A DNA stretch of 64,000 nucleotides. It comes from Candidatus Tectimicrobiota bacterium. GTDB lineage: Bacteria > JACPUC01. Positions 10,462-24,894 of this stretch are shown one piece after another. The notes under the pieces were generated by a model. That model was not told the origin of the DNA and made no database searches. It was given only the letters and a program-made list of their open reading frames with translations. Position numbers and translations under genes: made by a program. The number at the start of each line of letters is the position of its first letter. Positions within the stretch are counted from its first letter, which is position 1. The DNA lies in the NCBI GenBank assembly GCA_016192455.1, contig JACPUC010000016.1, positions 16,305 through 80,304 of the forward strand, in the 5' to 3' direction.

Positions 10462-12129
10462 TTACGAGCCGCTCTTCGCTCCGGCCGCGGCGAGCCTCGT
10501 CTGGATGTCTCTGCGCAGGGCGTTCTTGTCCACCTTGCCGATATTGGTGAGGGGAAAGTTCTCCACATACTCAAGGCGCTCGGGGAGTTTGAACTTGGCG
10601 ATGCCCTTGCCGATGAGGAACGTCCCCAGCTCGCTCAGCGAGGGGCGCGCCGCGCCGCGTGGGATCACGTAGGCGCACACTCTCTCTCCGAAACGGGCGT
10701 CCGGCATGCCGACCACGGCGACATCCTCCACCGCCTCGTGAGTCAGCAGCAGCTCCTCCACCTCGACCGCGCTGATGTTCTCCCCGCCTCGAATGATGAC
10801 ATCCTTCTTGCGACCGGTGATCTGTAGGTAGCCCTCCGGCGTGAACCGCGCCATGTCGCCGGTGCAGAGGAAGCCATCCGGTGTGAAGGCGGTGCGATTC
10901 ACCTCGGGAACCCGGTAGTAGCCGCGGATGGTATGCGGGCAGCGCCACAGGAGCTCCCCCTCCGCACCGGGCGCCACCGGATTCCCATCATCATCAACGA
11001 TCCGCAGCTCTGCCTCGGGGCTGTCTGGCCGTCCCACAGTGGTGGCGCTCACCTCAAAGGGGTCCTCCGGGCGCGTCGTGCTGATGGGTCCCTCAGCCAT
11101 CCCGAAGGTGTTGAGCGTCACCGCCCCCATCTTCTCCTTCAACCCCCGCACCAGCTCCTCCGCGACGTGCGCGGCGCCGCAACAGACATGGCGGAAGGAG
11201 GAGAAATCCGTGCTGCCGAGAGCTGGGGATTCCAGCATCGCCACGACCTGGGTGGGCACGAAGATGGAGGTGGAGATGCGCTCGCGCTCGATCAGCTCGA
11301 AGGTCGCCTCGGCGGTGAAGTGATCCAGGAGCACCAGCTTGGCGCCCTGGTACACGGAGATCATGAGGCCGCCAAGGAGGGCGGCGTTGTGAGCAATCGG
11401 CGTGATCGCCAGGTACGAGGTGGTATGATCCCGCCGCCAAGTCGCGCCCCAGTCGCGGGCATTGCAGATGTAGTCGTTATGGGTGCGTGGCACCAGCTTC
11501 GGGTCGGCCGTGGTGCCGCCCGTGGTCAGGAGCACGGCAACATCCATGGGGTCCGGACGCAGCGCAGCCAAGCACGAGGCGGCGTTGGAGCCGCCGCGGC
11601 TTGCGTGGGTGAGCATCCGGCGCACATCGACCCAGCCCGCCGGCACCTCGTCACCCACCATGATGAGGTGGGCGAGGCTCGGCACCTGCCGGCGAATCTC
11701 GGCGGCCAACGGCGCGTAGTCGAAGCGCCGGAAGTGATCAGGCATCACCAGGGCCACCGCCTCGCTAAGCCGGCCCATGTAGATGAGCTCGCGCTGCCGG
11801 TGCGGCGGCAGGGCCATGACGCTGATGGCCCCCATCTTGGCGAGCGCGAAGTAGAGGATCTCGAACTCCGCCCAGTTGGGAAGCTGCACCAGGACGCGAT
11901 CGCCCCTGCCGATCCCCAGCTCGGCGAGCTGCAGGGCGAGGCGGTTAGCCGCATCACGGAGCCCTGCGTAGGTAAGGCGTTGGCGGTGGTCCACCACTGC
12001 TTCCGCGGCCGGGGAGCGCGCCGCCGCGGCATCGAGCAGATCGCCCAGCGTCCGCTGCTCCCAGAAGCCCTTCTCCACGTAGGCTCGTGCCAGCTCCGCG
12101 GGATAGGGAGTGACCCCGTCGAGTGCCAC
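10462..12129 (-). CDS. DhbE/EntE-like AMP-dependent ligase
   Basis: A 555-residue acyl-adenylating enzyme. The start, with PYPAELARAYVEKGFWEQRT, follows the 2,3-dihydroxybenzoate-AMP ligase (EntE/DhbE) pattern. Core motifs are LLTTGGTTADPKLVPRTHND (about 208-227), NTFGMAEG, YYRVPEVNRTAF, GFLCTGDMARFTPEGY, GRKKDVIIRGGENIS and the catalytic lysine in LTNIGKVDKNALRRD. The family activates an aryl or other carboxylic acid with ATP and passes it to CoA or a carrier protein. No siderophore or carrier-protein gene is nearby, so an aryl-CoA or related catabolic role is as likely as siderophore synthesis. The convergent neighbour is the zinc-ribbon gene. Confidence 0.85.
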   Translation of the reverse strand: MALDGVTPYPAELARAYVEKGFWEQRTLGDLLDAAAARSPAAEAVVDHRQRLTYAGLRDAANRLALQLAELGIGRGDRVLVQLPNWAEFEILYFALAKMGAISVMALPPHRQRELIYMGRLSEAVALVMPDHFRRFDYAPLAAEIRRQVPSLAHLIMVGDEVPAGWVDVRRMLTHASRGGSNAASCLAALRPDPMDVAVLLTTGGTTADPKLVPRTHNDYICNARDWGATWRRDHTTSYLAITPIAHNAALLGGLMISVYQGAKLVLLDHFTAEATFELIERERISTSIFVPTQVVAMLESPALGSTDFSSFRHVCCGAAHVAEELVRGLKEKMGAVTLNTFGMAEGPISTTRPEDPFEVSATTVGRPDSPEAELRIVDDDGNPVAPGAEGELLWRCPHTIRGYYRVPEVNRTAFTPDGFLCTGDMARFTPEGYLQITGRKKDVIIRGGENISAVEVEELLLTHEAVEDVAVVGMPDARFGERVCAYVIPRGAARPSLSELGTFLIGKGIAKFKLPERLEYVENFPLTNIGKVDKNALRRDIQTRLAAAGAKSGS

Positions 12130-12329: not shown

Positions 12330-14693
12330 CTAACGCGGCGGGATGTCGATGATAATATCGGCGGTCGCCACTCCGTTCGTGGTGAGGACCGCGTAGGTGT
12401 ACGTGGCGGAGGTCCCCGGCGGAAATTCAAGCCGCCTGAGTGTGAAGGTGTAGCGGCGGCCAGTCGCATCCCGGCGATACTCCGTGACGAAGTGGATCGG
12501 CAGCACTTCGCCTTCGAGGATGAGGCGGTCATCCACGATCTCGGTGCGGGTAAAGGGGACCTCGATCGAAAAGACGAGGTCCACGGGCGCGGCTGAGGTG
12601 ATGAGCTCCTGACTGATCGTCAGCTTGAGTTCACGCGCCGGCGGTGGTGGCGGGGGCGGGGGAGGAGGCGGCGCTGCCGCCAGGACGGTCTCGGGCTCAA
12701 CCTCTGCGTTTCGGGGCGGCGCGTTAGCCGTCTGGCCGCCCTCCTCCGCACCTGGCTCGGCTATCGGCGCCTCCGCTACCGGCTCCGGCGGCGGCTCCAC
12801 GCCCTCGACGCTGAAGACCAGGACGCGACGATCGCCGATGAGCATTGCGAAGACGCCGTCATCATGGGAGAGGGCGCCGGCGGCGAAACCGGCCTCGGTC
12901 AAGTCGAACATCGCGACGACGGCGTCGGCAGCGTTCCCCGCGGCGAGGGCGCGCCGCGGCGCCACGGCGTAGAGACGATCATGCCCCTGCGGGGCCGCGC
13001 TGCGCTCGGCAAGCCAGAGGAGCGCGCCGTCCCAGGCCAGGCCGACGATCTCGCGCCCAGCCCGCCAGGCGTGCGGAGCAAGGAACCATCCCCGGCGCTC
13101 GAAGCGCGTCGCATCGACCTCGACCACGCGGTCCAGGGCGCCAAACTCGGGACGGCCCCGTTCGAGGATCCACAGCCGCGAGCCATTCGTGGCCAAGAGG
13201 CCCGGTGTGTGGCTCGGCGCGAAGAGGCCGAAGTCGGGTCCCCCCTCTCGGAAGCGCAGGTCGCGGAGGTCGCGGCGGCGCAGGCGGCCGCTCAGCGCGT
13301 CCACGGTGAGGAGCGCATCCGCCGAGATATCCAGGTCGCTCACCGGCCGCGACGCGCCCTCCTCGTCCGCCAGGTCCAAGGTCCGCAGGATGGCGCGGTT
13401 GCGCAGCACGAAGGTGCCCGTCGGCGCCTGGAACCCCTCCTCAAGATCGACCGCAAAAAGCCGGTTGGTGCCCTCCGTGTCCTGGCCGGTGACGTAGAGG
13501 GTATTCCCAAGCTTTGTCAGGCGATTCGCCCGCACGCTGGAGGGCAGGAGGTAGGCGATCTCTTGCACGAGCCTGGGGAGGCTCGCCCCCGATGTCGCCG
13601 CGGCCGTGCGCTCGTCCTGCGGTCCACTTGCCGCTGCGTCCTCAGCCGCAACGCTCGCCCGCACGGCGACAAGGTCGACCCGCGCCTGCGGCGGTGTCGG
13701 CGAGGGCCCCCCTGGCAGGAGTCTGACGCGCAGGAACCACTGGCGCAGCCTGGAGATATCCGCGCGCCCGGCGCGGGGCGCAAGGCGGTTGTCCAGCACC
13801 TCCGTCGCCCCCTCGGAGAGCGCCACGCCGGTCAGGGGATCGAGGAGAAGGCGGTAGCCGGCTGCGGGGGCGACGCTGGGGGTGGGGCCGCCGCCGCGGT
13901 TCTCCAGGAGCACGACGCAGCTCCCGAGCTCCGTGCAGTCCGGGGCGGCGGGCGGATCAACGAGACGCTCGGCCAGCTCCACCCGCACCGCGGCGTTGCG
14001 CGCCACACTCCCGATGGCGACCTCGAGAGTCACCGGCAGCTCACCGCGCAGGTCCTGCCGTGCTGCAAGCGTGATGGAAGCAGGCGCCTCGCCGGGAGCC
14101 GCGGCTGCGAGCTCCAGGGTGATCCCCCCGGCCGCACTCCGCAGCCCGGCACTCCCTGCCGGCCCCTCCAGGCTCCAGGTCTGCGGCGACAGGGAGTCGC
14201 CCCGAAAAGCATCGTCAAGGAGCAGGCGGCGCGATGCTCCCTGGGGCTCGAAGACGCGCAGCAGGGGGAGTGAGACGGCGACGGTGGTATCCTCGTTTAC
14301 GACGAGGCCCGTCTGGGTGCGCCGCGCGAAGCCGTTGGCGTGCGCGTGCACCACCACGTCGCCGGGTGGGACGAGGAGGAAGAAGAAGCCCTCATTATCT
14401 GTCCGCGTCGACTGCCCGTCGCTCGTGACGACGCTGGCCCCTTCGATCGGGGCGCCGCCGGCGTTCTCGAGGACGAAACCGGCCACCGCGCTTACCGCTT
14501 GCGACCCGGCTTCAGGCGCCGCCGCCGCGCTGCCCAGGATCAGCAGGAGCAGGCAGAGGCCGGCACGGACGCACCGCCTGGGGCGTCGCCGCAGGACCTC
14601 TGCCGCAACGAGGTGCTGGCCGCCAACGTGATGGGCCACCGTCGAACCCTTCGAACCACTCAGGAGCGGTTCTCCTCCTGCCTCCGGAGACAT
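12330..14693 (-). CDS. Large secreted protein with carboxypeptidase-regulatory-like domain
   Basis: 787 residues from the upstream ATG. A GTG at 14639 (VAHHVGGQ), closer to the signal peptide, is the alternative start. The signal peptide is RRCVRAGLCLLLLILGSAAA (about 39-58). Then come a carboxypeptidase-regulatory-like beta sandwich (AGFVLENAGGAPIEGASVV to about 140), a beta-rich segment resembling a concanavalin/LamG-type domain (about 155-345), a region of repeated short strands that could be a propeller (about 370-650), a linker of 12 prolines near 700 broken by few other residues, and a C-terminal beta domain ending IIIDIPPR. No catalytic site was recognised. It is probably a periplasmic or surface binding protein. 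Confidence 0.7.
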   Translation of the reverse strand: MSPEAGGEPLLSGSKGSTVAHHVGGQHLVAAEVLRRRPRRCVRAGLCLLLLILGSAAAAPEAGSQAVSAVAGFVLENAGGAPIEGASVVTSDGQSTRTDNEGFFFLLVPPGDVVVHAHANGFARRTQTGLVVNEDTTVAVSLPLLRVFEPQGASRRLLLDDAFRGDSLSPQTWSLEGPAGSAGLRSAAGGITLELAAAAPGEAPASITLAARQDLRGELPVTLEVAIGSVARNAAVRVELAERLVDPPAAPDCTELGSCVVLLENRGGGPTPSVAPAAGYRLLLDPLTGVALSEGATEVLDNRLAPRAGRADISRLRQWFLRVRLLPGGPSPTPPQARVDLVAVRASVAAEDAAASGPQDERTAAATSGASLPRLVQEIAYLLPSSVRANRLTKLGNTLYVTGQDTEGTNRLFAVDLEEGFQAPTGTFVLRNRAILRTLDLADEEGASRPVSDLDISADALLTVDALSGRLRRRDLRDLRFREGGPDFGLFAPSHTPGLLATNGSRLWILERGRPEFGALDRVVEVDATRFERRGWFLAPHAWRAGREIVGLAWDGALLWLAERSAAPQGHDRLYAVAPRRALAAGNAADAVVAMFDLTEAGFAAGALSHDDGVFAMLIGDRRVLVFSVEGVEPPPEPVAEAPIAEPGAEEGGQTANAPPRNAEVEPETVLAAAPPPPPPPPPPPARELKLTISQELITSAAPVDLVFSIEVPFTRTEIVDDRLILEGEVLPIHFVTEYRRDATGRRYTFTLRRLEFPPGTSATYTYAVLTTNGVATADIIIDIPPR

Positions 14694-14947: not shown

Positions 14948-15937
14948 TTATGCTTGGAGATCGTAGCATTTCAGCTTGTTGTAGAGCGTTTTTAAGCCGA
15001 TGCCAAGGATCTTGGCGGTTCGCGTCTTGTTGCCGTTCTGGTGCTTCAGAACCCGCAGGATGTGACGCCGCTCAACCTCGGCCAGCGGCAGCGTCTCCTC
15101 ATCGACGCGGCGCATGCTCAGCGAGGCAAAGCGGATGTGCGGCGGCAGCTCGTGGAGGCCGACGCGGCCATGCTCCGTCACCACGCGCAGGTGCTCGAGC
15201 AGGTTCTGCAGCTCGCGCACATTTCCGGGCCAGTGGTAGTGCTGCAGCGTGTGCAGCGCCTCGGGGGAGAGCTTCAACGGAGGACGGCCAAGCTCGCCGC
15301 GCGCCAAGAGGAAATGCTCGACAAGCACCGGGATGTCGCTCAGGCGCTGCCGCAACGCCGGCACCTGCAGCGCCACCACATTAAGCCGATAGTAGAGGTC
15401 CTCGCGGAAGCGTCCCGCCTCCACCTCGGCGGTTAAGTCCTTATTCGTCGCCGCGATCACCCGCACGTTGACATGCCGCGTCTTCGTGCTCCCCAGGCGG
15501 CGAATCTCACCCGATTGCAGGACGCGCAACAGCTTCACCTGCATGGGGGGGGTCAGCTCGCCAACCTCGTCGAGGAAGAGGCTGCCGCGGTCCGCCGCTT
15601 CGAAGAGCCCCTGCGTGCTGGCGACCGCGCCAGTAAAGGAGCCCCGCTCATGGCCGAAGAGTTCGCTCTCCATCACGGTCTCTTGCAGGGCCCCGCAGTT
15701 CAACGTGACGAAGGGGCCTTCGCGGCGCTCACTCAGGCTGTGCAGGATCTGCGCCACCAGCTCTTTGCCGGTGCCGCTCTCGCCCTGAATGAGCACCGTG
15801 ACATCCTTTGGCGCCAGTTTCGGCAGCAACCGCCACAGCTCTTGCATGGCAGGGCTGCTGCCGATCATCTGCACCGGCGGCGCATCGTGGCGCTGGCGCC
15901 GTTGCAAAACATTTTCGAAGGGAACGACGTTCGCCAT
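14948..15937 (-). CDS. PspF-like sigma-54-dependent transcriptional activator
   Basis: A 329-residue bacterial enhancer-binding protein with no N-terminal receiver or sensor domain. The AAA+ domain starts near residue 23 (QMIGSSPAMQELWRLLPKLA). Walker A is GESGTGKE (52-59), the sigma-54 contact loop is GSFTGA (99-104, a common form of GAFTGA), Walker B is GSLFLDEVGEL, and the arginine-finger region is FREDLYYRLNV. A Fis-type helix-turn-helix ends the protein (RTAKILGIGLKTLYNKLKCY). I chose the ATG after GGGAGAGGCGGG. It is divergent from the sigma-54 promoter at 16432-16447 and is the obvious candidate to act there. Without a sensory domain its activity would need a partner protein, as PspF does with PspA. 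Confidence 0.88.
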   Translation of the reverse strand: MANVVPFENVLQRRQRHDAPPVQMIGSSPAMQELWRLLPKLAPKDVTVLIQGESGTGKELVAQILHSLSERREGPFVTLNCGALQETVMESELFGHERGSFTGAVASTQGLFEAADRGSLFLDEVGELTPPMQVKLLRVLQSGEIRRLGSTKTRHVNVRVIAATNKDLTAEVEAGRFREDLYYRLNVVALQVPALRQRLSDIPVLVEHFLLARGELGRPPLKLSPEALHTLQHYHWPGNVRELQNLLEHLRVVTEHGRVGLHELPPHIRFASLSMRRVDEETLPLAEVERRHILRVLKHQNGNKTRTAKILGIGLKTLYNKLKCYDLQA

Positions 15938-16096
15938 CCCGCCTCTCCCACGGAGCCTGCCAAGGAATCTCCATCGCGCCCTGGCTTCGAATCGCATCGT
16001 CTCGTCGCCCGTCCCAAAGCAAGCAGAATGCCATCACTCTCCGCCCTCGCAAATCGACCCGGAAGAATCCCAGGAAATCCATGGAACTCCTTGTTA

Positions 16097-16188: not shown

Positions 16189-16202
16189 GCAACTTTTGTT
16201 GC
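16189..16202. promoter_or_regulatory. Dyad site 1, possible enhancer for a sigma-54 activator
   Basis: GCAACTTTTGTTGC is a perfect inverted repeat with five-base arms, about 240 bases upstream of the -24 element. Its reverse complement recurs, with 13 of 14 positions, at 16287-16300. Confidence 0.5.
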
Positions 16203-16230
16203 AACTCGCTGGCCCGCGCTCGAGAGAATC

Positions 16231-16262
16231 GTGAAACCAATTGAAACTTCACGAGGTTTCAC
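16231..16262. promoter_or_regulatory. Inverted repeat GTGAAACC / GGTTTCAC
   Basis: Two perfect eight-base arms, GTGAAACC (16231-16238) and GGTTTCAC (16255-16262), are separated by 16 bases. The arms lie 24 bases apart start to start, a spacing compatible with a dimeric regulator. It lies between dyad sites 1 and 2. Confidence 0.4.
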
Positions 16263-16265
16263 TTC

Positions 16266-16304
16266 CACCAAAAGTTGTCGCAAGCGGCAACAAAAGTTGT
16301 TGCC
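16266..16304. promoter_or_regulatory. Dyad sites 2 and 3, possible enhancers
   Basis: CACCAAAAGTTGT (16266-16278) and CAACAAAAGTTGT (16288-16300) are direct repeats with one mismatch, 22 bases apart, about two helical turns. The second sits in a longer dyad, GGCAAC-N7-GTTGCC (16286-16304). They lie about 130-165 bases upstream of the -24 element, the usual range for sigma-54 enhancers. Confidence 0.5.
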
Positions 16305-16431
16305 TTGGACGTTCGCGGCGGCTACACTGTTGCCGTGGCGTGCCTCACCTGGCTCGGATGCCGGCGGCGGCGCACTCCTCGCCACCGAAGGGGAGTTTTC
16401 CGCCGCGGCGGACGGCGGCGGCGCTGTGGCT

Positions 16432-16447
16432 TGGCGCGGAAGTTGCA
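16432..16447 (+). promoter_or_regulatory. Sigma-54 (-24/-12) promoter
   Basis: TGGCGCGGAAGTTGCA matches the consensus TGGCACG-N4-TTGCA at every fixed position but one (A to G at position 5). GG and GC have the required spacing of ten bases. Transcription would start near 16458, about 160 bases before the RsbW-like gene. Confidence 0.7.
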
Positions 16448-16616
16448 CCACGAAGCGGCAATCCTCCCGACGAGGTGCGAGGGAGAAGTCCGCGGGGGTT
16501 CCTGCGGCGGTGTGCGTCGTCCGGTTGCGCGGCCCCCAACCTGGCGGAAGTCTCGTCGGTGGGGCAGGCGCGGCGGCGCGCCGTGGATAGGGTCGCGAGC
16601 TCTGCGAGGTAGGCGT

Positions 16617-17126
16617 ATGCCATCCTCTCCGGTCGGCGATCATCCCCCGCTCCCTTCTCCCCTGGTGTTGCTTCGCCTTCCCAGCGATTTTCGCTTCGAG
16701 CGGGTTGCTGTCGACACGGTCACCAGCCTGGCCCGGCAGCTTCGCTTCCCGCACGAGAAAGTGGAAATCCTCAGGACCGCCGTGGGAGAGGCCTATCTCA
16801 ACGCCATCGAGCACGGCAACCGTCGGGACGCCGCGTCGGAGGTGGAAATCTCGTTCGTCGTCGAGGATGGCCAGCTCACCGTGCTGGTGCGGGACGGCGG
16901 CCATGGCTTCGATCTGCAGCGCCTCCCCTCCCCCTGCCTGGAGGAGAAGCTTGCCGGGCACTCGCCGGCGCGCGGCTGGGGGCTCTTCCTCATGCGCGCC
17001 CTGGTGGATGACCTGCGCGTGGATCACTCCGCCACGGGCGGGAATCGCCTCATCATCGTCGTGCGCCGTCAAGCGGGCGAGGGGGCCATGGGAGGAGCGC
17101 CGCCGGCGCGGCCCGGCCTTCCCTAG
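16617..17126 (+). CDS. RsbW/SpoIIAB-like anti-sigma-type serine kinase
   Basis: A 169-residue GHKL ATPase of the HATPase_c_2 family. The N box is AVGEAYLNAIEHGN (55-68, with E58 and N62), the G1 box is DGGHGFD (93-99) and the G2-like box is RGWGLFLMRALVDD. The ATG has GAGGT seven bases upstream. Such kinases phosphorylate a STAS partner and bind a target, usually a sigma factor, in a switchable way. The STAS partner is the next gene. No sigma factor gene is in the operon, so the target is unknown. One of the two sigma-54 activators is a candidate, which is inference. Confidence 0.87.
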   Translation: MPSSPVGDHPPLPSPLVLLRLPSDFRFERVAVDTVTSLARQLRFPHEKVEILRTAVGEAYLNAIEHGNRRDAASEVEISFVVEDGQLTVLVRDGGHGFDLQRLPSPCLEEKLAGHSPARGWGLFLMRALVDDLRVDHSATGGNRLIIVVRRQAGEGAMGGAPPARPGLP

Positions 17127-17278
17127 CCCCACGGGGAGGGACCCCGGCGGGCGCATGAGGTGGGCGACAAAGCGACCCCCCGGATGAAACCCGGGCCGCG
17201 GCAGCGCTTGTGGGGAGATTCTTGCGCCTCACGCGGCAGCCGTCGCGCTGCCTCCAGCCGAACCCAGCGAGGAAGGCC

Positions 17279-17632
17279 ATGAGCAACGAGTTCCACATCG
17301 AGGTCCAGCGCACCGCCAACGGCCCGCTCCTGCGGTTGCGCGGCGATATCACCGCCTTTGCTGAAGCGCGCTTCGATGAGGCCGTGCAGCCGCTGCTCAA
17401 GGAGGGCTGCGCGCAGATGGTGCTCGATTTCAGCGGCGTTGACTACATCAACAGCGCCGGCATCGCGGTGCTCATCGCCCTCGTCTCCGCCATGAAGGAG
17501 CGCAACGGCGACCTGGCGGCCATCGGCCTCTCCCCGCACTACGAGAAGATCTTCACCATGGTTGGGCTGACGCAGTATATCAAGGTGCGCGGGCGATCCG
17601 CCGATGCCTCAGCCACAGATGGCCCTGCCTGA
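17279..17632 (+). CDS. STAS-domain anti-anti-sigma factor-like protein
   Basis: A 117-residue single STAS domain (SpoIIAA/RsbV family). The phosphorylation-site region is VLDFSGVDYINSAGIAVLI, with S59 as the expected phosphoserine. The ATG follows GAGGAAGGCC. In partner switching the unphosphorylated form binds the RsbW-like kinase and frees its target. The kinase is immediately upstream and a PP2C phosphatase is in the same operon (21797-23782), so the full cycle is encoded here. Confidence 0.9.
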   Translation: MSNEFHIEVQRTANGPLLRLRGDITAFAEARFDEAVQPLLKEGCAQMVLDFSGVDYINSAGIAVLIALVSAMKERNGDLAAIGLSPHYEKIFTMVGLTQYIKVRGRSADASATDGPA

Positions 17633-17829
17633 GACTGCCCGGCCATCTCCACCTGGAGCTTGCAGACGAGTCCGCCCGAGGTTCGGCCCAAGGTTGAGGC
17701 TGGCGGGCCGATGGAAGAAGTCATGATCGACAGCGGCACGCCCTCCCCGCGGGGATTCCGGTCATCCGCAGCAAGCAGCTTCGCCGTTGCCGCTGCGGGA
17801 GACTCCCTGCTGCGCGCGCGTGCCTTCAG

Positions 17830-20055
<2,226 letters not shown>

Positions 20056-20168
20056 GGGCGGCGCATCCTGCCGCGCCGCGCCCTCCCCGTCCTCGAGCCT
20101 CTACCTTGAGCCTGGAGGCACTCCACGCTAGAGTAGGATGAGGCTACGGCGAATCCCGGCGAGGCGCC

Positions 20169-21791
20169 GTGGCGCGCTGCACCCTGGTGCCGCCCGCGCC
20201 GGCGGTCCGTCCTTTCGCCCCGCTCTGGAGCCTCGAGCGCTCCCGTGCCGCTGACGATGTGGGGGAAAGCCAGGTGCGCCCTGGTCGCCAGAACCAGCGC
20301 CGGTTCCTCGGCTGCGTGTGCCTCGCCGGCTGGTTTCCATGCTCCCTCCTCAACCTTCCTCGGCGCCGCTGGCACGTCCGCCGGCGGCTGACGCCACGCA
20401 CCGTAGCGTCACCCCTGCGAGCCCTTGGAACCTGCCTCGCCGTCGCCGCCTTGCTGGGGCTGGGGATGTCGCCGCCGCTCGCCGCCCAGCCTCCGCCGCA
20501 CGTCTCCCTCTATCGCCCGCTTGCCCCCACCCCCTTCAATGCTCTCCTCGATGCCCTCGTCGCCAAGCTCCGCGAGCGCGGCATGACGGTCCGCGAGGAG
20601 CGCCTGCCTCCTGCGCCGCAGCCTGATCCTCGGGGCGCGCCTCTCGCCGCGGAGCCACCGGATCGCCCCGCGGGGGAAGCCCCCGCAGCGGCGCCCGGCC
20701 AGCCCCCCGGCGTGTTCCTGGTCCTTGGGCTGGAACTGGCGGGGAGGCTGGCAAGCCCAGCATCCCAGCCGCTCCTCGTGTTGAGCGAGAACTGCGCGAA
20801 CGGCGCTACGCTGCCCGACTGGCTGCGCCAGCGCCGGGGCCCGACCCAAATCTACTGCCTGGCCCTCTCCACCCAGCAGTGGCTTCTGCCGCTGCGCCGC
20901 CTGCTGCCGCAGGGGAGCCGCCTGGGCCTCATCGCGCTGGAGGCGCCGCCCCCCGCGCCGTCCCCCGCGGCTCCCGGACCGCCGCCGACCGTGCTGGACG
21001 GCAGTCTCGCCGCGCTCGGCGCCGAGCTGGCAACTCTTGGCGTGCAGCTCATCACCCAGGGGGTGCCGAGCCCCGACGCCGTGCCAGCGGCTCTGCGACT
21101 CGCGCGACCCCGCATCGACGCCCTCTGGGTGCCGCCCCGCAGTATCCTCCTGCGCGCCGAGTACATCCCGGAAATCCTGCGCTTCAGTCTCGAGGAACGC
21201 CTGCCGGTCTTCGTCCCAACGCAGAGTCTCGTGCGCGCCGGCTACCTCGCCGCCGCCGAGGTCGACGAGACGGCGCTCCTGGAGAACCTGCTCCAAACCG
21301 TCGCGCGGCTCGGCGGTGCGCAACCAGCCGAGCCGCCCGGGCCGACCCCCGCCCCCGCCCCTGCCCGCTACGCCGTGAACGTGGAGACGGCGCGCCGGCT
21401 GGGGCTGCGCGTCCACGCCGAGGAACTGCGCTGGGCGCACGCCGTCTTTCCCTTCCCCTTCGAGGTGCAGGACCTCCTGGATCGTTATGCCGAGGCCTTT
21501 CAGCGCGAGGACGCGCGCCGCTACGAGGCCGCCTTCTGGGAGCCGACGGCGCGTCAGCTCAAGGGCTTTGATCGGTTGATGCGCACCGCGCGCAATATCC
21601 AGGTGGAGTTTGAGACCCAACGGGTGGAGTACACCGAGGGAGCGGCGCGCATGCAGATCCACGTCGTTCAGATCTTCACCTTCATCGATGAGATGTCGGG
21701 ACGCCAGGTGTCGCTCCGCGCGCCCTTTCAGTTCCAGCTCGAACGCCGGCAGAACGAGTGGCGCATCACCGGCATGCAGCAAGGCGGGTAG
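20169..21791 (+). CDS. Secreted ABC_sub_bind (TrpX-like) plus NTF2-like fusion protein
   Basis: 540 residues from a GTG with GAGG five bases upstream. No better start exists before the signal peptide-like helix (LGTCLAVAALLGLGMSPPLA, about 87-106), so the N-terminus is uncertain. Residues about 112-420 follow the ABC_sub_bind (PF04392-type) pattern: paired Rossmann-like halves, IDALWVPPRSILLRAEYIPE, RLPVFVPTQSLVRAGYLAA, and the family's end motif YAVNVETARRLGLRV. Residues about 435-540 are an NTF2/SnoaL-like domain (DLLDRYAEAFQREDARRYEA ... NEWRITGMQQ). There is no permease or ATPase beside it. It ends 5 bases before the PP2C phosphatase gene, so I infer a periplasmic signal-input role and not transport. 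Confidence 0.72.
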   Translation: MARCTLVPPAPAVRPFAPLWSLERSRAADDVGESQVRPGRQNQRRFLGCVCLAGWFPCSLLNLPRRRWHVRRRLTPRTVASPLRALGTCLAVAALLGLGMSPPLAAQPPPHVSLYRPLAPTPFNALLDALVAKLRERGMTVREERLPPAPQPDPRGAPLAAEPPDRPAGEAPAAAPGQPPGVFLVLGLELAGRLASPASQPLLVLSENCANGATLPDWLRQRRGPTQIYCLALSTQQWLLPLRRLLPQGSRLGLIALEAPPPAPSPAAPGPPPTVLDGSLAALGAELATLGVQLITQGVPSPDAVPAALRLARPRIDALWVPPRSILLRAEYIPEILRFSLEERLPVFVPTQSLVRAGYLAAAEVDETALLENLLQTVARLGGAQPAEPPGPTPAPAPARYAVNVETARRLGLRVHAEELRWAHAVFPFPFEVQDLLDRYAEAFQREDARRYEAAFWEPTARQLKGFDRLMRTARNIQVEFETQRVEYTEGAARMQIHVVQIFTFIDEMSGRQVSLRAPFQFQLERRQNEWRITGMQQGG

Positions 21792-21796
21792 GTGGC

Positions 21797-23782
21797 ATGA
21801 GCTTGCGTACGCTCGGCATTCAAGGCAAGCTCCTGAGCTTCTTCCTGGTGGTGATCATCATCCCGCTGCCACTGCTGGCGAGCGTTGTCTATTGGCGCAG
21901 CAGCGGCGTGGTGAAAGGCCAGGTGCTGGAGCAGCTTGCCTGGATCGCCGGCGAGATGACCGGCAAGGTCGGCAGCGCGCTCTTCACCGCCGGGGAGCAG
22001 GCGCGCCTCCTCGCCAACCTGCCCGACATCCGCAACTACCTACGCGCCCGCGCCTTCGGCCTGCAGGAAGACCTGGCGCGTCAACAGGCGAGCCTGCGAG
22101 AGTACTTCGAGCAGTTCCTGCTGGATCATCCGCGCTTCAGCCACGTCGGCTTCCTCGACGACCGCGGCGGCGCCGTGGCGGCCGCCCCCGCGAGCTGGAG
22201 CGCCGCCGCGCAGCGCGCCGCAGGGGACGAGGAGGCCTTGGCGCTGACCCCGCAACGGGCCACGCGGCGCGTGCTGGCGCCAGCTCAGACTGGGGGGGAG
22301 CCGTTGGTGCGCTTCGTCGTGCCGGTGCAACGTGAGGAGGCCCGCGGCCTGGGCACCGAAGCCGCAAGAGCGGCCCAGGAGCTCCTCGGCAGCTTCCAGG
22401 CCCCCGAGGGCGTGCTCGTCTTGGACATGAACCTCACTGAGCTGCGCAGCATCTTCGCCAGCCTGCGGATCGGGTCGCGCGGGCGGGCGTTCCTCCTGGA
22501 CGCCCGGGGAGGGGTGCTGGCAGGGGGTGATGAGCTGAACCGCCTGAACTTTGCCAGCCGCGCCCCCGCCGATCTGGCCTCGCTGCTCGGACGAATTGTC
22601 GGCGGCATCTCCGGCACCGGCGAGTACGCCTGCTTGGAAACGACCTGCCTCGTCGCCTTCGCGACCCTCACCCAGGAGGGCTGGAAAGCGACCGTGGTGG
22701 CGCCGCAGGCGGACTTCACCCGCTGGGTGGACGAGATGCGCACCCTCACGATCATCTTCACGGCGCTCATCTTCGTGGCCGCGGTGCTGGCCGCGGTGCT
22801 CTTCACCCGGCAGATTTCCGGTCCCCTCCAGGAACTCGATGCCGCCGCCCGCAGAGTTGCCGCGGGTGACTTCTCGGTGCGCGTCAACCTGGCGCGCCGG
22901 GACGAGATCGGCCGCCTCGCCGAGACCTTTGAGAGCATGACGAAACGTCTGCGCGACTACATGGTGGAGATGGAGGAGAAGCAGCGCCTGCAGCAGGAAC
23001 TGAGCATCGCCCGGTCGATCCAGGCCAGTTTGCTGCCGCAGCATCCGCCGCGCCTTCCCCGGCTCGACCTGCAAGCCCTCTCCCTGCCGGCCCGCGAGGT
23101 TGGCGGCGACTACTACGATTTCTTCCACCGCCAGGCCGGCCGGCCGAACGAGCGCCTGGGGCTGGCCATCGGCGACGCCTCCGGCAAGGGGGTGCCGGCC
23201 TCCCTGCTGATCTCGATGACGCGCAGCCTCCTGCGCTCGCAGGTGGAGGTCTCCACCTCGCCCGGCGAGGCGGTGGCGGCGGTGAACCGCCTCCTCTTCG
23301 AGGACTGCGTGGGGTTTCGCAACTTCGTCAGCATCTTCTACGCCGAGTTTGAGCCGGCCTCGTTGACCTTGCGCTGCGCCAACGCCGGCCAGCTCTTCCC
23401 TCTGTACTGCCGGGGGCGCGATCGTCATATTGAGTTCCTGACGCTGCCCGGCACGCCCCTTGGGGTGCGCAGCGATGCGCAGTTCCCCGAGGCCACCCTG
23501 GTTCTGGAGCCGGAGGACGTCCTCGTCCTCTATACTGATGGCATCGTGGAGGCGATGGACGAGCGGCGCCGCATGTACAGCTTCGACCGCCTGCAGCGCA
23601 CCATCCAGCGCCTGGCGGCGGGTTCGGCCAGAGCCATCATCGATGCCATCATCGAAGACGTGACAAAGTTTTGCGGCGGCGAGGCGCCGAATGATGATAT
23701 GACCCTCATCGTCATGAAGGTCAGGGAGGGCGCGCCGCGCGACGAGGCGCTCTCCGGCACGGAGGCGGGAGCGGAGGGATGA
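21797..23782 (+). CDS. Membrane RsbU-like PP2C phosphatase with periplasmic sensor and HAMP
   Basis: 661 residues. A first membrane helix (LLSFFLVVIIIPLPLLASVV, about 11-30), a periplasmic region of about 280 residues resembling a Cache-type sensor, a second helix (IIFTALIFVAAVLAAVLF, about 316-333), a HAMP domain (LQELDAAARRVAAGDFSVRV), a coiled coil (MEEKQRLQQELSIARSIQAS) and a SpoIIE/PP2C domain. Metal-binding motifs are REVGGDYYDFF, AIGDASGKGVPASL, LVLYTDGIVEA and APNDDMTLIVMKV. The start is the ATG after GGTAGGTGGC. It should dephosphorylate the STAS protein of the operon when a periplasmic signal is sensed. The next gene overlaps its end by 4 bases. Confidence 0.88.
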   Translation: MSLRTLGIQGKLLSFFLVVIIIPLPLLASVVYWRSSGVVKGQVLEQLAWIAGEMTGKVGSALFTAGEQARLLANLPDIRNYLRARAFGLQEDLARQQASLREYFEQFLLDHPRFSHVGFLDDRGGAVAAAPASWSAAAQRAAGDEEALALTPQRATRRVLAPAQTGGEPLVRFVVPVQREEARGLGTEAARAAQELLGSFQAPEGVLVLDMNLTELRSIFASLRIGSRGRAFLLDARGGVLAGGDELNRLNFASRAPADLASLLGRIVGGISGTGEYACLETTCLVAFATLTQEGWKATVVAPQADFTRWVDEMRTLTIIFTALIFVAAVLAAVLFTRQISGPLQELDAAARRVAAGDFSVRVNLARRDEIGRLAETFESMTKRLRDYMVEMEEKQRLQQELSIARSIQASLLPQHPPRLPRLDLQALSLPAREVGGDYYDFFHRQAGRPNERLGLAIGDASGKGVPASLLISMTRSLLRSQVEVSTSPGEAVAAVNRLLFEDCVGFRNFVSIFYAEFEPASLTLRCANAGQLFPLYCRGRDRHIEFLTLPGTPLGVRSDAQFPEATLVLEPEDVLVLYTDGIVEAMDERRRMYSFDRLQRTIQRLAAGSARAIIDAIIEDVTKFCGGEAPNDDMTLIVMKVREGAPRDEALSGTEAGAEG

Positions 23783-24894
23783 TGCGGCGCCGTCGTCCAG
23801 GCAGCAAGGCGCGTTGGCTGCTCCGCCTCCTGGCGCTGCTTGGGGCCGCGGCGGTAGTGTGGGCGGCGCCGCGGCAGGCCCCTGGGCAGGACCTCTTCGG
23901 CGACCTCCTCATCTTTCGCCCGCAGGCGCAGATTGATCAGGTGCGGCGGGGCATCTCGCGGGGCATCTCGCGCATCCCCTTCAGCTCCACACCCGGCGGC
24001 TTCGTCTTCCGCTTCAATCCCGAGTTGGGCATTCCGCAGCCCGTCTCCGAGAGCCTCGGGCCCTCATTCGTGGAACGCGCCCCGACCCTCGGCCGGGGCA
24101 TCATCTCGGCTGGCATCTCGGTCACGCACCTGAACTTCGACCTCCTCGAAGGCGTGGACCTGGACGACCTCTTCGACGCCACGGTGGTGGAGCAACCGGG
24201 CGGCCTGCTGACGATCACGCGTCGGCAGGACGTCAACCTCAAGCTAGAGCAGACGCTGCTGGCGGTCAGCGGCTTCTATGGCTTGAGCGAGCGCTTCGAC
24301 CTCGGGATCGTCGTGCCGTTCGTCTCCAATCGCCTGCGCGCCGTGTCAAGCATCTCCGGAACGCGCCAGCTCGCGGGGGGAGAGCCCCGTCCCCTCCCCG
24401 CCACGGTGACCGCGAGCACCTTGAACGAACAGGGGCTGGGGGATGTGCTCCTGCGGGCCAAGTATTTCTTCGCGGAGTCCCGCTTCCCGTTCGAGTTTGC
24501 CGTTGCGCTCGACCTCAAGCTGCCAACCGGCGATGAAGAGCGACTCCTTGGCAACGGCGATCTTGAGGTGCGCCCCCTGACGATCGCCTCGCGCTCGTTC
24601 GGTCCCTTCACCCCGCACCTCAACCTGGGCGCCATCCTGAACACGCGCAGCAGCGAAGGGAGCGGGTTCTTCTACGGTGCGGGCGCGGACGTGCGCCTCC
24701 TGTCGAGGCTGACGGCATCCGTCGAGTACTTCGCCCAGACGGATGAGGAGGACACCATCGCCGACCTTGCCCTGGGCCTGAAATGGAACCCTTGGAAGCG
24801 CCTGGTGCTGCGTGGCAGCCTGCGCTGGAGCGTCAACGAGGACGGGCTGCGCGACCGTCTCACCCCAACGTTCGGTATCGAGGCGAGCTTTTGA
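23779..24894 (+). CDS. Outer-membrane beta-barrel protein
   Basis: 371 residues. A signal peptide (RWLLRLLALLGAAAVVWAAP) is followed by alternating strands ending in aromatic residues and a C-terminal phenylalanine (TPTFGIEASF), the hallmark of outer-membrane barrels. The segment RFDLGIVVPFVSNRL ... GLGDVLLRAKYFFAE resembles the MetA-pathway-of-phenol-degradation type of putative transporter family. The ATG overlaps the stop of the phosphatase gene by 4 bases, so translation is coupled. It is the last gene of the signalling operon and could let a ligand into the periplasm or report on the envelope. Function within the family is poorly known. Confidence 0.72.
   Translation: MMRRRRPGSKARWLLRLLALLGAAAVVWAAPRQAPGQDLFGDLLIFRPQAQIDQVRRGISRGISRIPFSSTPGGFVFRFNPELGIPQPVSESLGPSFVERAPTLGRGIISAGISVTHLNFDLLEGVDLDDLFDATVVEQPGGLLTITRRQDVNLKLEQTLLAVSGFYGLSERFDLGIVVPFVSNRLRAVSSISGTRQLAGGEPRPLPATVTASTLNEQGLGDVLLRAKYFFAESRFPFEFAVALDLKLPTGDEERLLGNGDLEVRPLTIASRSFGPFTPHLNLGAILNTRSSEGSGFFYGAGADVRLLSRLTASVEYFAQTDEEDTIADLALGLKWNPWKRLVLRGSLRWSVNEDGLRDRLTPTFGIEASF

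What the first reader, a model, noticed from the sequence alone, without database searches (positions are those of the whole stretch)
16189..24894. Complete partner-switching cycle fused to a sigma-54 module in one apparent operon
Seen: RsbW-like kinase, STAS protein, GAF/AAA+/Fis regulator, secreted ABC_sub_bind-NTF2 protein, membrane RsbU-like PP2C and an outer-membrane barrel, all plus strand with small gaps or overlaps. A divergent PspF-like activator and a -24/-12 promoter stand at the head. Known: RsbW/RsbV/RsbU sets usually control a sigma factor, and none is encoded here. Inference: the switch may gate one of the two AAA+ regulators, giving a periplasmic-ligand-controlled sigma-54 system. 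I know of no described system with this exact layout.
Basis: partly seen in the sequence, partly recalled or inferred. Interest (0 to 1): 0.82.

Follow-up and report, generated by a model that had tools for sequence, protein, structure and literature searches.

The report
Partner switch wired to AAA+ regulator
This gene cluster links a bacterial protein "partner switch" (kinase, phosphatase and the small protein they act on) not to a sigma factor but to an enhancer-type AAA+ regulator that has lost the loop normally needed to touch sigma-54; the same pairing recurs in distant bacteria and points to an undescribed output for a classic signalling switch.

Summary
Six plus-strand genes are present (RsbW-like kinase, STAS, GAF-AAA+-Fis, ABC_sub_bind+NTF2-like, dCache-HAMP-PP2C, outer-membrane barrel), with a divergent AAA+ activator. 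Two things change the reading.

First, the in-operon AAA+ protein (D) has GVATGV where the sigma-54-contacting GAFTGA should be. Only the divergent activator (A, GSFTGA) is a canonical sigma-54 activator. The two best -24/-12 matches of the 64 kb and three copies of an enhancer-like repeat found nowhere else in the genome lie between A and the kinase.

Second, the linkage recurs. GxATGV-type GAF-AAA+ genes sit beside PP2C and RsbW kinase in 17 of 20 fetched sites of the KSB1/Caldithrix phylum, in one further lineage (G082), and with PP2C, STAS and RsbW in a Desulfovibrio type III secretion locus. None of 40 GAFTGA regulators, mostly from the same genomes, had kinase plus PP2C or STAS.

The exact six-gene layout was found nowhere else. 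The input half (barrel, ABC_sub_bind, HAMP sensor) recurs elsewhere with a histidine kinase.

Best reading: a partner switch whose output is the GAFTGA-less AAA+ protein D, under sigma-54/A transcription. Physical contact is inferred. Verdict: real, a new variant of a known kind, mechanism open.

The parts
14948..15997 (-). Gene A: AAA+ activator with Fis-type HTH, no sensory domain, GSFTGA loop intact; divergent from the operon
   Evidence: Pfam Sigma54_activat 8e-71, HTH_8; loop read; nearest relatives in hand are acidobacterial activators divergent from a PP2C-RsbW-STAS cluster
16018..16033 (-). sigma-54 -24/-12-like promoter TGGCATTCTGCTTGCT facing gene A
   Evidence: one of only two one-mismatch matches in 64 kb
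16190..16205 (-). Enhancer-like repeat CAACAAAAGTTG, copy 1 (inverted)
   Evidence: three matches in the whole genome, all in this intergenic region
16231..16262 (.). Second inverted repeat GTGAAACC...GGTTTCAC
   Evidence: I4
16266..16281 (+). Enhancer-like repeat, copy 2 (CACCAAAAGTTGTCGC)
16288..16303 (+). Enhancer-like repeat, copy 3 (CAACAAAAGTTGTTGC), 22 bp from copy 2
16432..16447 (+). sigma-54 -24/-12-like promoter TGGCGCGGAAGTTGCA facing the kinase operon
   Evidence: score reached in 1% of shuffles
16617..17126 (+). Gene B: RsbW/SpoIIAB-like serine kinase
   Evidence: HATPase_c_2 4e-25; best NCBIfam RsbW; profile matches solved RsbW and SpoIIAB
17279..17632 (+). Gene C: STAS anti-anti-sigma-type protein with Ser59
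   Evidence: STAS 6e-16; TIGR00377 over cut-off
17830..20055 (+). Gene D: unclassified N-terminus, GAF, AAA+ with GVATGV in place of GAFTGA, Fis-type HTH
   Evidence: 42% identity over 509 aa to the KSB1-phylum regulator in L233
20397..21791 (+). Gene E: secreted ABC_sub_bind-type ligand-binding protein with NTF2-like C-terminus (start uncertain, 20318-20440)
21797..23782 (+). Gene F: membrane dCache-HAMP-PP2C phosphatase (RsbU type)
   Evidence: catalytic motifs
23779..24894 (+). Gene G: outer-membrane beta-barrel (Phenol_MetA_deg family)
   Evidence: Pfam 2e-7; homologue next to an ABC_sub_bind gene in L069

Best explanation
A partner-switching system whose output is an AAA+ transcription regulator, not a sigma factor. 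Proposed cycle: in the resting state kinase B phosphorylates STAS protein C on Ser59 and is free to hold its second partner. When the membrane phosphatase F senses a periplasmic signal, directly through dCache or via the secreted ligand-binding protein E, with G as the outer-membrane entry, it dephosphorylates C. C then captures B and releases the second partner. That partner is most likely D, the GAF-AAA+-Fis protein whose sigma-54 loop reads GVATGV. Transcription of the module is set by A, a canonical sigma-54 activator acting on the enhancer-like repeats and the two facing -24/-12 promoters between A and B. Shown by sequence: all parts and motifs, the loop substitution, the promoter and repeat layout, and recurrent linkage of this regulator type with RsbW and PP2C. 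Inferred: the phosphorylation cycle, the signal, contact between B (or C) and D, and what D does to transcription (sigma-70 promoter control, altered sigma-54 contact, or mixed hexamers with A).
For: GxATGV-type regulators are rare (7 sites in 290 genomes) against 330 GAFTGA sites in 22 genomes. In the KSB1/Caldithrix phylum the pattern found 23 sites in 82 genomes; of 20 fetched, 18 have PP2C and 17 PP2C plus RsbW close by, usually in the order regulator-PP2C-kinase(-STAS), while 0 of 40 GAFTGA controls have kinase plus PP2C or STAS (Fisher 3e-12, not corrected for relatedness). The same type occurs with kinase, STAS and PP2C in unrelated G082, and the Desulfovibrio pDVUL01 type III secretion locus holds a GVATGV regulator, SpoIIE phosphatase, STAS and RsbW. 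D aligns with the KSB1-phylum regulator over GAF, AAA+ and HTH (42%) and falls in its clade with the loop columns removed (SH-aLRT 94). The KSB1 phosphatase examined is also Cache-HAMP-PP2C. Repeat and promoters.
Against: No contact data. Five of 7 GVATGV sites in scattered genomes lack the linkage. Some KSB1-phylum loci have no adjacent STAS. Kinase and PP2C trees do not show that the window's switch genes descend together with D. The genome has other sigma factors, FliA type included. No sigma-54 promoter was found ahead of the KSB1 operons.
Confidence: 0.5

Rival explanations
1. D is still a working sigma-54 activator despite GVATGV, and the partner switch controls a sigma-54 regulon through it.
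For: DVUA0100 (GVATGV) was predicted to control sigma-54 type III secretion promoters (PMC4641369). Walker A, Walker B and HTH are intact. 20 of 22 genomes or records searched (21 genomes and one plasmid; the misses are G290 and the plasmid) carry sigma-54.
Against: The central Phe and Thr of GAFTGA are reported as essential (PMC3162934). GAFTGA-less relatives (Caulobacter and R. capsulatus NtrC, VpsR) act at sigma-70 promoters (PMC10274813). KSB1 operons show no nearby sigma-54 promoter.
Confidence: 0.25
2. Conventional partner switch: kinase B is the anti-sigma factor of a sigma-70-family factor encoded elsewhere (for example the FliA-type factor) or acts on an anti-FliA protein, as in Pseudomonas PA3346/PA3347-FlgM; D merely regulates the operon.
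For: RsbW relatives normally bind sigma factors. The genome has RpoD, two RpoD/RpoS-like and one FliA-type factor. STAS-to-FlgM precedent (PMC8256260).
Against: No sigma or anti-sigma gene is linked here or was seen beside the KSB1-phylum operons inspected; the constant neighbour is the GxATGV regulator.
Confidence: 0.25
3. A-centred switch: the PspF-like activator A, which has no sensory domain, is held by the kinase or STAS protein as PspF is held by PspA; D is a second, independent regulator.
For: A lacks a sensory domain, has an intact loop, stands divergent, and its nearest relatives in hand are acidobacterial activators divergent from PP2C-RsbW-STAS (L148, L157).
Against: Only 2 of the acidobacterial loci carry such an activator, and the sampling of A's relatives is thin. 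The best-supported cross-phylum linkage is with D's type.
Confidence: 0.2
4. Chance neighbours: unrelated regulators that merely sit together.
For: Gaps of 150-390 bp around C, D and E; the exact six-gene set was found nowhere else.
Against: Repeated D-type plus kinase plus PP2C linkage in several lineages against 0 of 40 controls.
Confidence: 0.05

Closest known systems
RsbU/RsbV/RsbW (and SpoIIE/SpoIIAA/SpoIIAB) partner switching of Bacillus
   Same: Kinase, STAS serine protein and PP2C phosphatase with intact motifs; profile match to solved RsbW and SpoIIAB
   Different: No sigma factor in the cluster; an AAA+ enhancer-type regulator is the conserved neighbour instead
DVUA0100 and the type III secretion locus of Desulfovibrio vulgaris (PMC4641369; pDVUL01)
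   Same: GVATGV regulator with a Cache-HAMP-PP2C phosphatase nearby, and STAS plus RsbW-like genes in the same locus; D and that regulator are 47% identical over 301 aa of AAA+
   Different: Embedded in a secretion system; no ABC_sub_bind or barrel partner in that operon; the paper passages read do not mention a partner switch
Syp system of Vibrio fischeri (SypE/SypA/SypG; PMC4517449)
   Same: Partner-switch proteins in the same biofilm system as a sigma-54 response regulator; STAS output without a known sigma target
   Different: SypG is a response regulator fed by a phosphorelay; SypE carries both kinase and phosphatase activity
SiaABCD of Pseudomonas aeruginosa (PMC8457831, PMC7647112)
   Same: A phosphatase-kinase-SiaC set with a non-sigma output; F's best NCBIfam model is SiaA, far below cut-off
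   Different: The output is a diguanylate cyclase, not a transcription regulator
GAFTGA-less NtrC of Caulobacter and Rhodobacter capsulatus, VpsR (PMC10274813)
   Same: Enhancer-type AAA+ proteins without the sigma-54 loop that act at sigma-70 promoters
   Different: Those NtrC proteins are response regulators with loop deletions; D is a GAF protein with a conserved substituted loop linked to a partner switch

Membership tests
RsbU/V/W partner switch | GHKL serine kinase with N-box Glu and ATP-binding boxes | tested here: met
RsbU/V/W partner switch | STAS protein with phosphorylatable Ser | tested here: met
   Ser59 in INSAGI; TIGR00377 over cut-off
RsbU/V/W partner switch | PP2C/SpoIIE phosphatase with metal-binding Asp motifs | tested here: met
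RsbU/V/W partner switch | Cognate sigma factor in or next to the cluster | tested here: not met
   none among the Pfam/NCBIfam-annotated genes of the cluster; four sigma-70-type genes lie elsewhere
RsbU/V/W partner switch | Kinase phosphorylates STAS, PP2C reverses it, partners exchange | not testable with these tools
   biochemistry needed
sigma-54 enhancer-binding protein (gene A) | AAA+ with GAFTGA-type loop and Fis HTH | tested here: met
   GSFTGA; Pfam; GSFTGA listed as compatible with activation (PMC4641369)
sigma-54 enhancer-binding protein (gene D) | AAA+ ATPase domain and Fis HTH | tested here: met
sigma-54 enhancer-binding protein (gene D) | GAFTGA sigma-54 contact loop | tested here: not met
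   GVATGV
ABC_sub_bind (PF04392), gene E | Match to the family model | tested here: inconclusive
   no direct Pfam hit; homologue hits, PDB 3lft 5.5e-6, fold match 8e-16
SiaABCD | Diguanylate cyclase SiaD as output | tested here: not met
   no GGDEF domain among the cluster genes

The most novel reading that the evidence does not exclude
Partner switching has a second, widespread kind of output: a GAF-AAA+-Fis regulator whose sigma-54 loop has been replaced by GxATGV and which is released or held by the RsbW kinase or the STAS protein, so that a serine-phosphorylation switch acts on an enhancer-type ATPase (as sigma-70 regulator or as a poison/tuning subunit of a sigma-54 activator) instead of on a sigma factor.
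Probability: 0.4. Interest if true: 0.82.

Novelty: new variant of a known kind. Interest (0 to 1): 0.62.

Why it matters
Partner switches are textbook devices for freeing sigma factors; some known ones (SypA, for example) have no identified target. A recurrent link to one rare AAA+ regulator type gives a concrete candidate target and makes it testable. It would also give a role to GAFTGA-less enhancer-type proteins, whose mode of action is unsettled, and would tie a periplasmic ligand sensor to them.

Tried and rejected
Searching with the ABC_sub_bind protein for the whole cluster: homologues mostly of its middle part, none with the six genes. Closest STAS homologues (G241, G236, G201, G059): no linked D, E, F or G. 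Co-descent of kinase and PP2C with D by trees: unresolved, long branches. Loss of sigma-54 as a test of D's mode: uninformative, since almost all these genomes have rpoN. Manganitrophus plasmid hit: unrelated layout. Second STAS gene of the genome (G000:C22): the kinase/PP2C/AAA+ profile models found none nearby. One paper on the GAFTGA Phe (PMC2764435) was not held.
Full report
Observation. The cluster was re-annotated from the sequence. Gene A (14948-15997, minus) is an AAA+ activator with a Fis-type HTH and no sensory domain. On the plus strand follow B (RsbW-like kinase, 16617-17126), C (STAS, 17279-17632), D (GAF-AAA+-Fis, 17830-20055), E (secreted, about 20397-21791), F (dCache-HAMP-PP2C, 21797-23782) and G (outer-membrane barrel, 23779-24894). 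Kinase, STAS and PP2C motifs are intact. E-F-G are tightly packed; B-C, C-D and D-E are separated by about 150-390 bp, with no convincing terminator between them. The genome (4.46 Mb, 88% complete) is the only one held for its phylum.

Control region. The only two one-mismatch matches to TGGCAC-N5-TTGCW in 64 kb lie in the A-B intergenic region, one facing A and one facing B. The number alone is what chance gives (mean 1.56); the place and orientation are not. A 16-bp near-palindrome CAMCAAAAGTTGYNGC occurs three times there and, allowing one mismatch, nowhere else in the genome. It lies 130-270 bp upstream of both promoters, as enhancers of sigma-54 promoters do.

The loop. A reads GSFTGA, a form accepted as functional. 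D reads GIESGVATGV. In published work changes of the central Phe or Thr of GAFTGA mostly abolish sigma-54 activation (PMC3162934), and natural GAFTGA-less relatives act at sigma-70 promoters (PMC10274813). Against that, the Desulfovibrio regulator DVUA0100, also GVATGV, was predicted to act on sigma-54 promoters (PMC4641369). D's mode is therefore open.

Recurrence of the switch-regulator link. The 80 nearest RsbW loci of named genomes show PP2C-kinase-STAS in Acidobacteria, tandem kinases plus STAS in Chloroflexi, and regulator-PP2C-kinase(-STAS) in candidate division KSB1, Caldithrix and one Bacteroidetes MAG. In the KSB1 and Caldithrix loci the regulators are GAF-AAA+-Fis proteins with GVATGV or GTATGV. 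A pattern scan independent of the kinase found GxATGV in 23 of 82 genomes of that phylum, one site each. Of 20 fetched, 18 have PP2C and 17 have PP2C and kinase within 5 kb, and some of the remainder end at a contig edge. Of 40 GAFTGA regulators, most of them from those genomes and the rest from G082 and the window's own genome, none has kinase plus PP2C or STAS. In 290 scattered genomes 7 GVATGV sites occur; two, the window and G082, carry the full switch, five do not. The Desulfovibrio plasmid pDVUL01 holds a GVATGV regulator with a Cache-HAMP-PP2C gene close by, and STAS plus RsbW genes at the far end of the same secretion locus. The KSB1 phylum counts as one lineage, so the link rests on about four lineages, not on 22 independent events.

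Relationship. D matches the KSB1-phylum regulator of L233 over GAF, AAA+ and HTH (42% of 509 aa). With the loop columns removed it groups with those regulators at SH-aLRT 94, whereas the G082 protein does not. The loop-plus-switch combination therefore probably arose more than once, or the tree is wrong on this point. Kinase and PP2C trees are unresolved. A's nearest relatives in hand are acidobacterial activators that stand divergent from PP2C-kinase-STAS; sampling for A was thin.

Input half. E has a periplasmic-binding fold closest to 3lft (L-Trp bound) and to CD0873, and an NTF2-like tail (mean pLDDT 74). In G225 (L069) a homologue of barrel G (33% identity) precedes an ABC_sub_bind gene, a HAMP histidine kinase and a response-regulator activator. 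In L105 a TonB receptor, ABC_sub_bind and HAMP histidine kinase are adjacent. So the barrel, ABC_sub_bind and membrane-sensor trio recurs with another output enzyme, and the window couples it to a PP2C switch.

Mechanism. See best explanation. The strongest inference is that the GxATGV regulator and the RsbW/PP2C pair work in one pathway. Whether B, C or neither touches D is not shown. FliA-type and two RpoD/RpoS-like sigma factors elsewhere in the genome keep a conventional target possible.

Known systems. Literature searches found no described partner switch with an enhancer-type AAA+ output. Syp, PA3346/PA3347-FlgM and SiaABCD show that non-sigma outputs exist. The library holds open-licence papers only, so absence is weak evidence.

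Noticed in passing
L214:45366-46133 and L215:27494-31913 (NC_008741, pDVUL01): A Desulfovibrio type III secretion locus carries RsbW-like and STAS genes at one end and a GVATGV regulator plus SpoIIE phosphatase at the other.
   Followed up: partly
L228, L229, L230, L231, L232, L234, L235: In part of the KSB1 phylum an ORF of up to about 680 aa matches both the RsbW kinase and the PP2C profile, directly behind the GTATGV regulator.
   Followed up: no
L217-L222: In these Caldithrix/KSB1-type loci regulator, PP2C and kinase are adjacent but no STAS gene is found nearby, so the kinase's substrate is unclear.
   Followed up: no
L110-L138 (Chloroflexi loci): Two RsbW-like kinase genes in tandem followed by one STAS gene, without PP2C, in many Chloroflexota.
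   Followed up: no
L125 (same contig as L068/L099): Another operon with kinase, membrane PP2C, a signal-bearing 436-aa ORF (possible outer-membrane protein), STAS and a GAFTGA regulator on one strand, in a MAG labelled Pseudomonadota.
   Followed up: partly
L069:7603-14039: Barrel, ABC_sub_bind, HAMP histidine kinase, receiver and response-regulator activator in a row: the window's input half with a different output.
   Followed up: partly
L080:7877-9460: A single protein appears to hold receiver, PP2C and RsbW-like kinase domains, next to sigma-54 activators and STAS.
   Followed up: no
window 12330-14693 and 10462-12129 (-): Upstream of A: a CarboxypepD_reg protein with a polyproline stretch, and an AMP-binding ligase; relation to the cluster unknown.
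   Followed up: no
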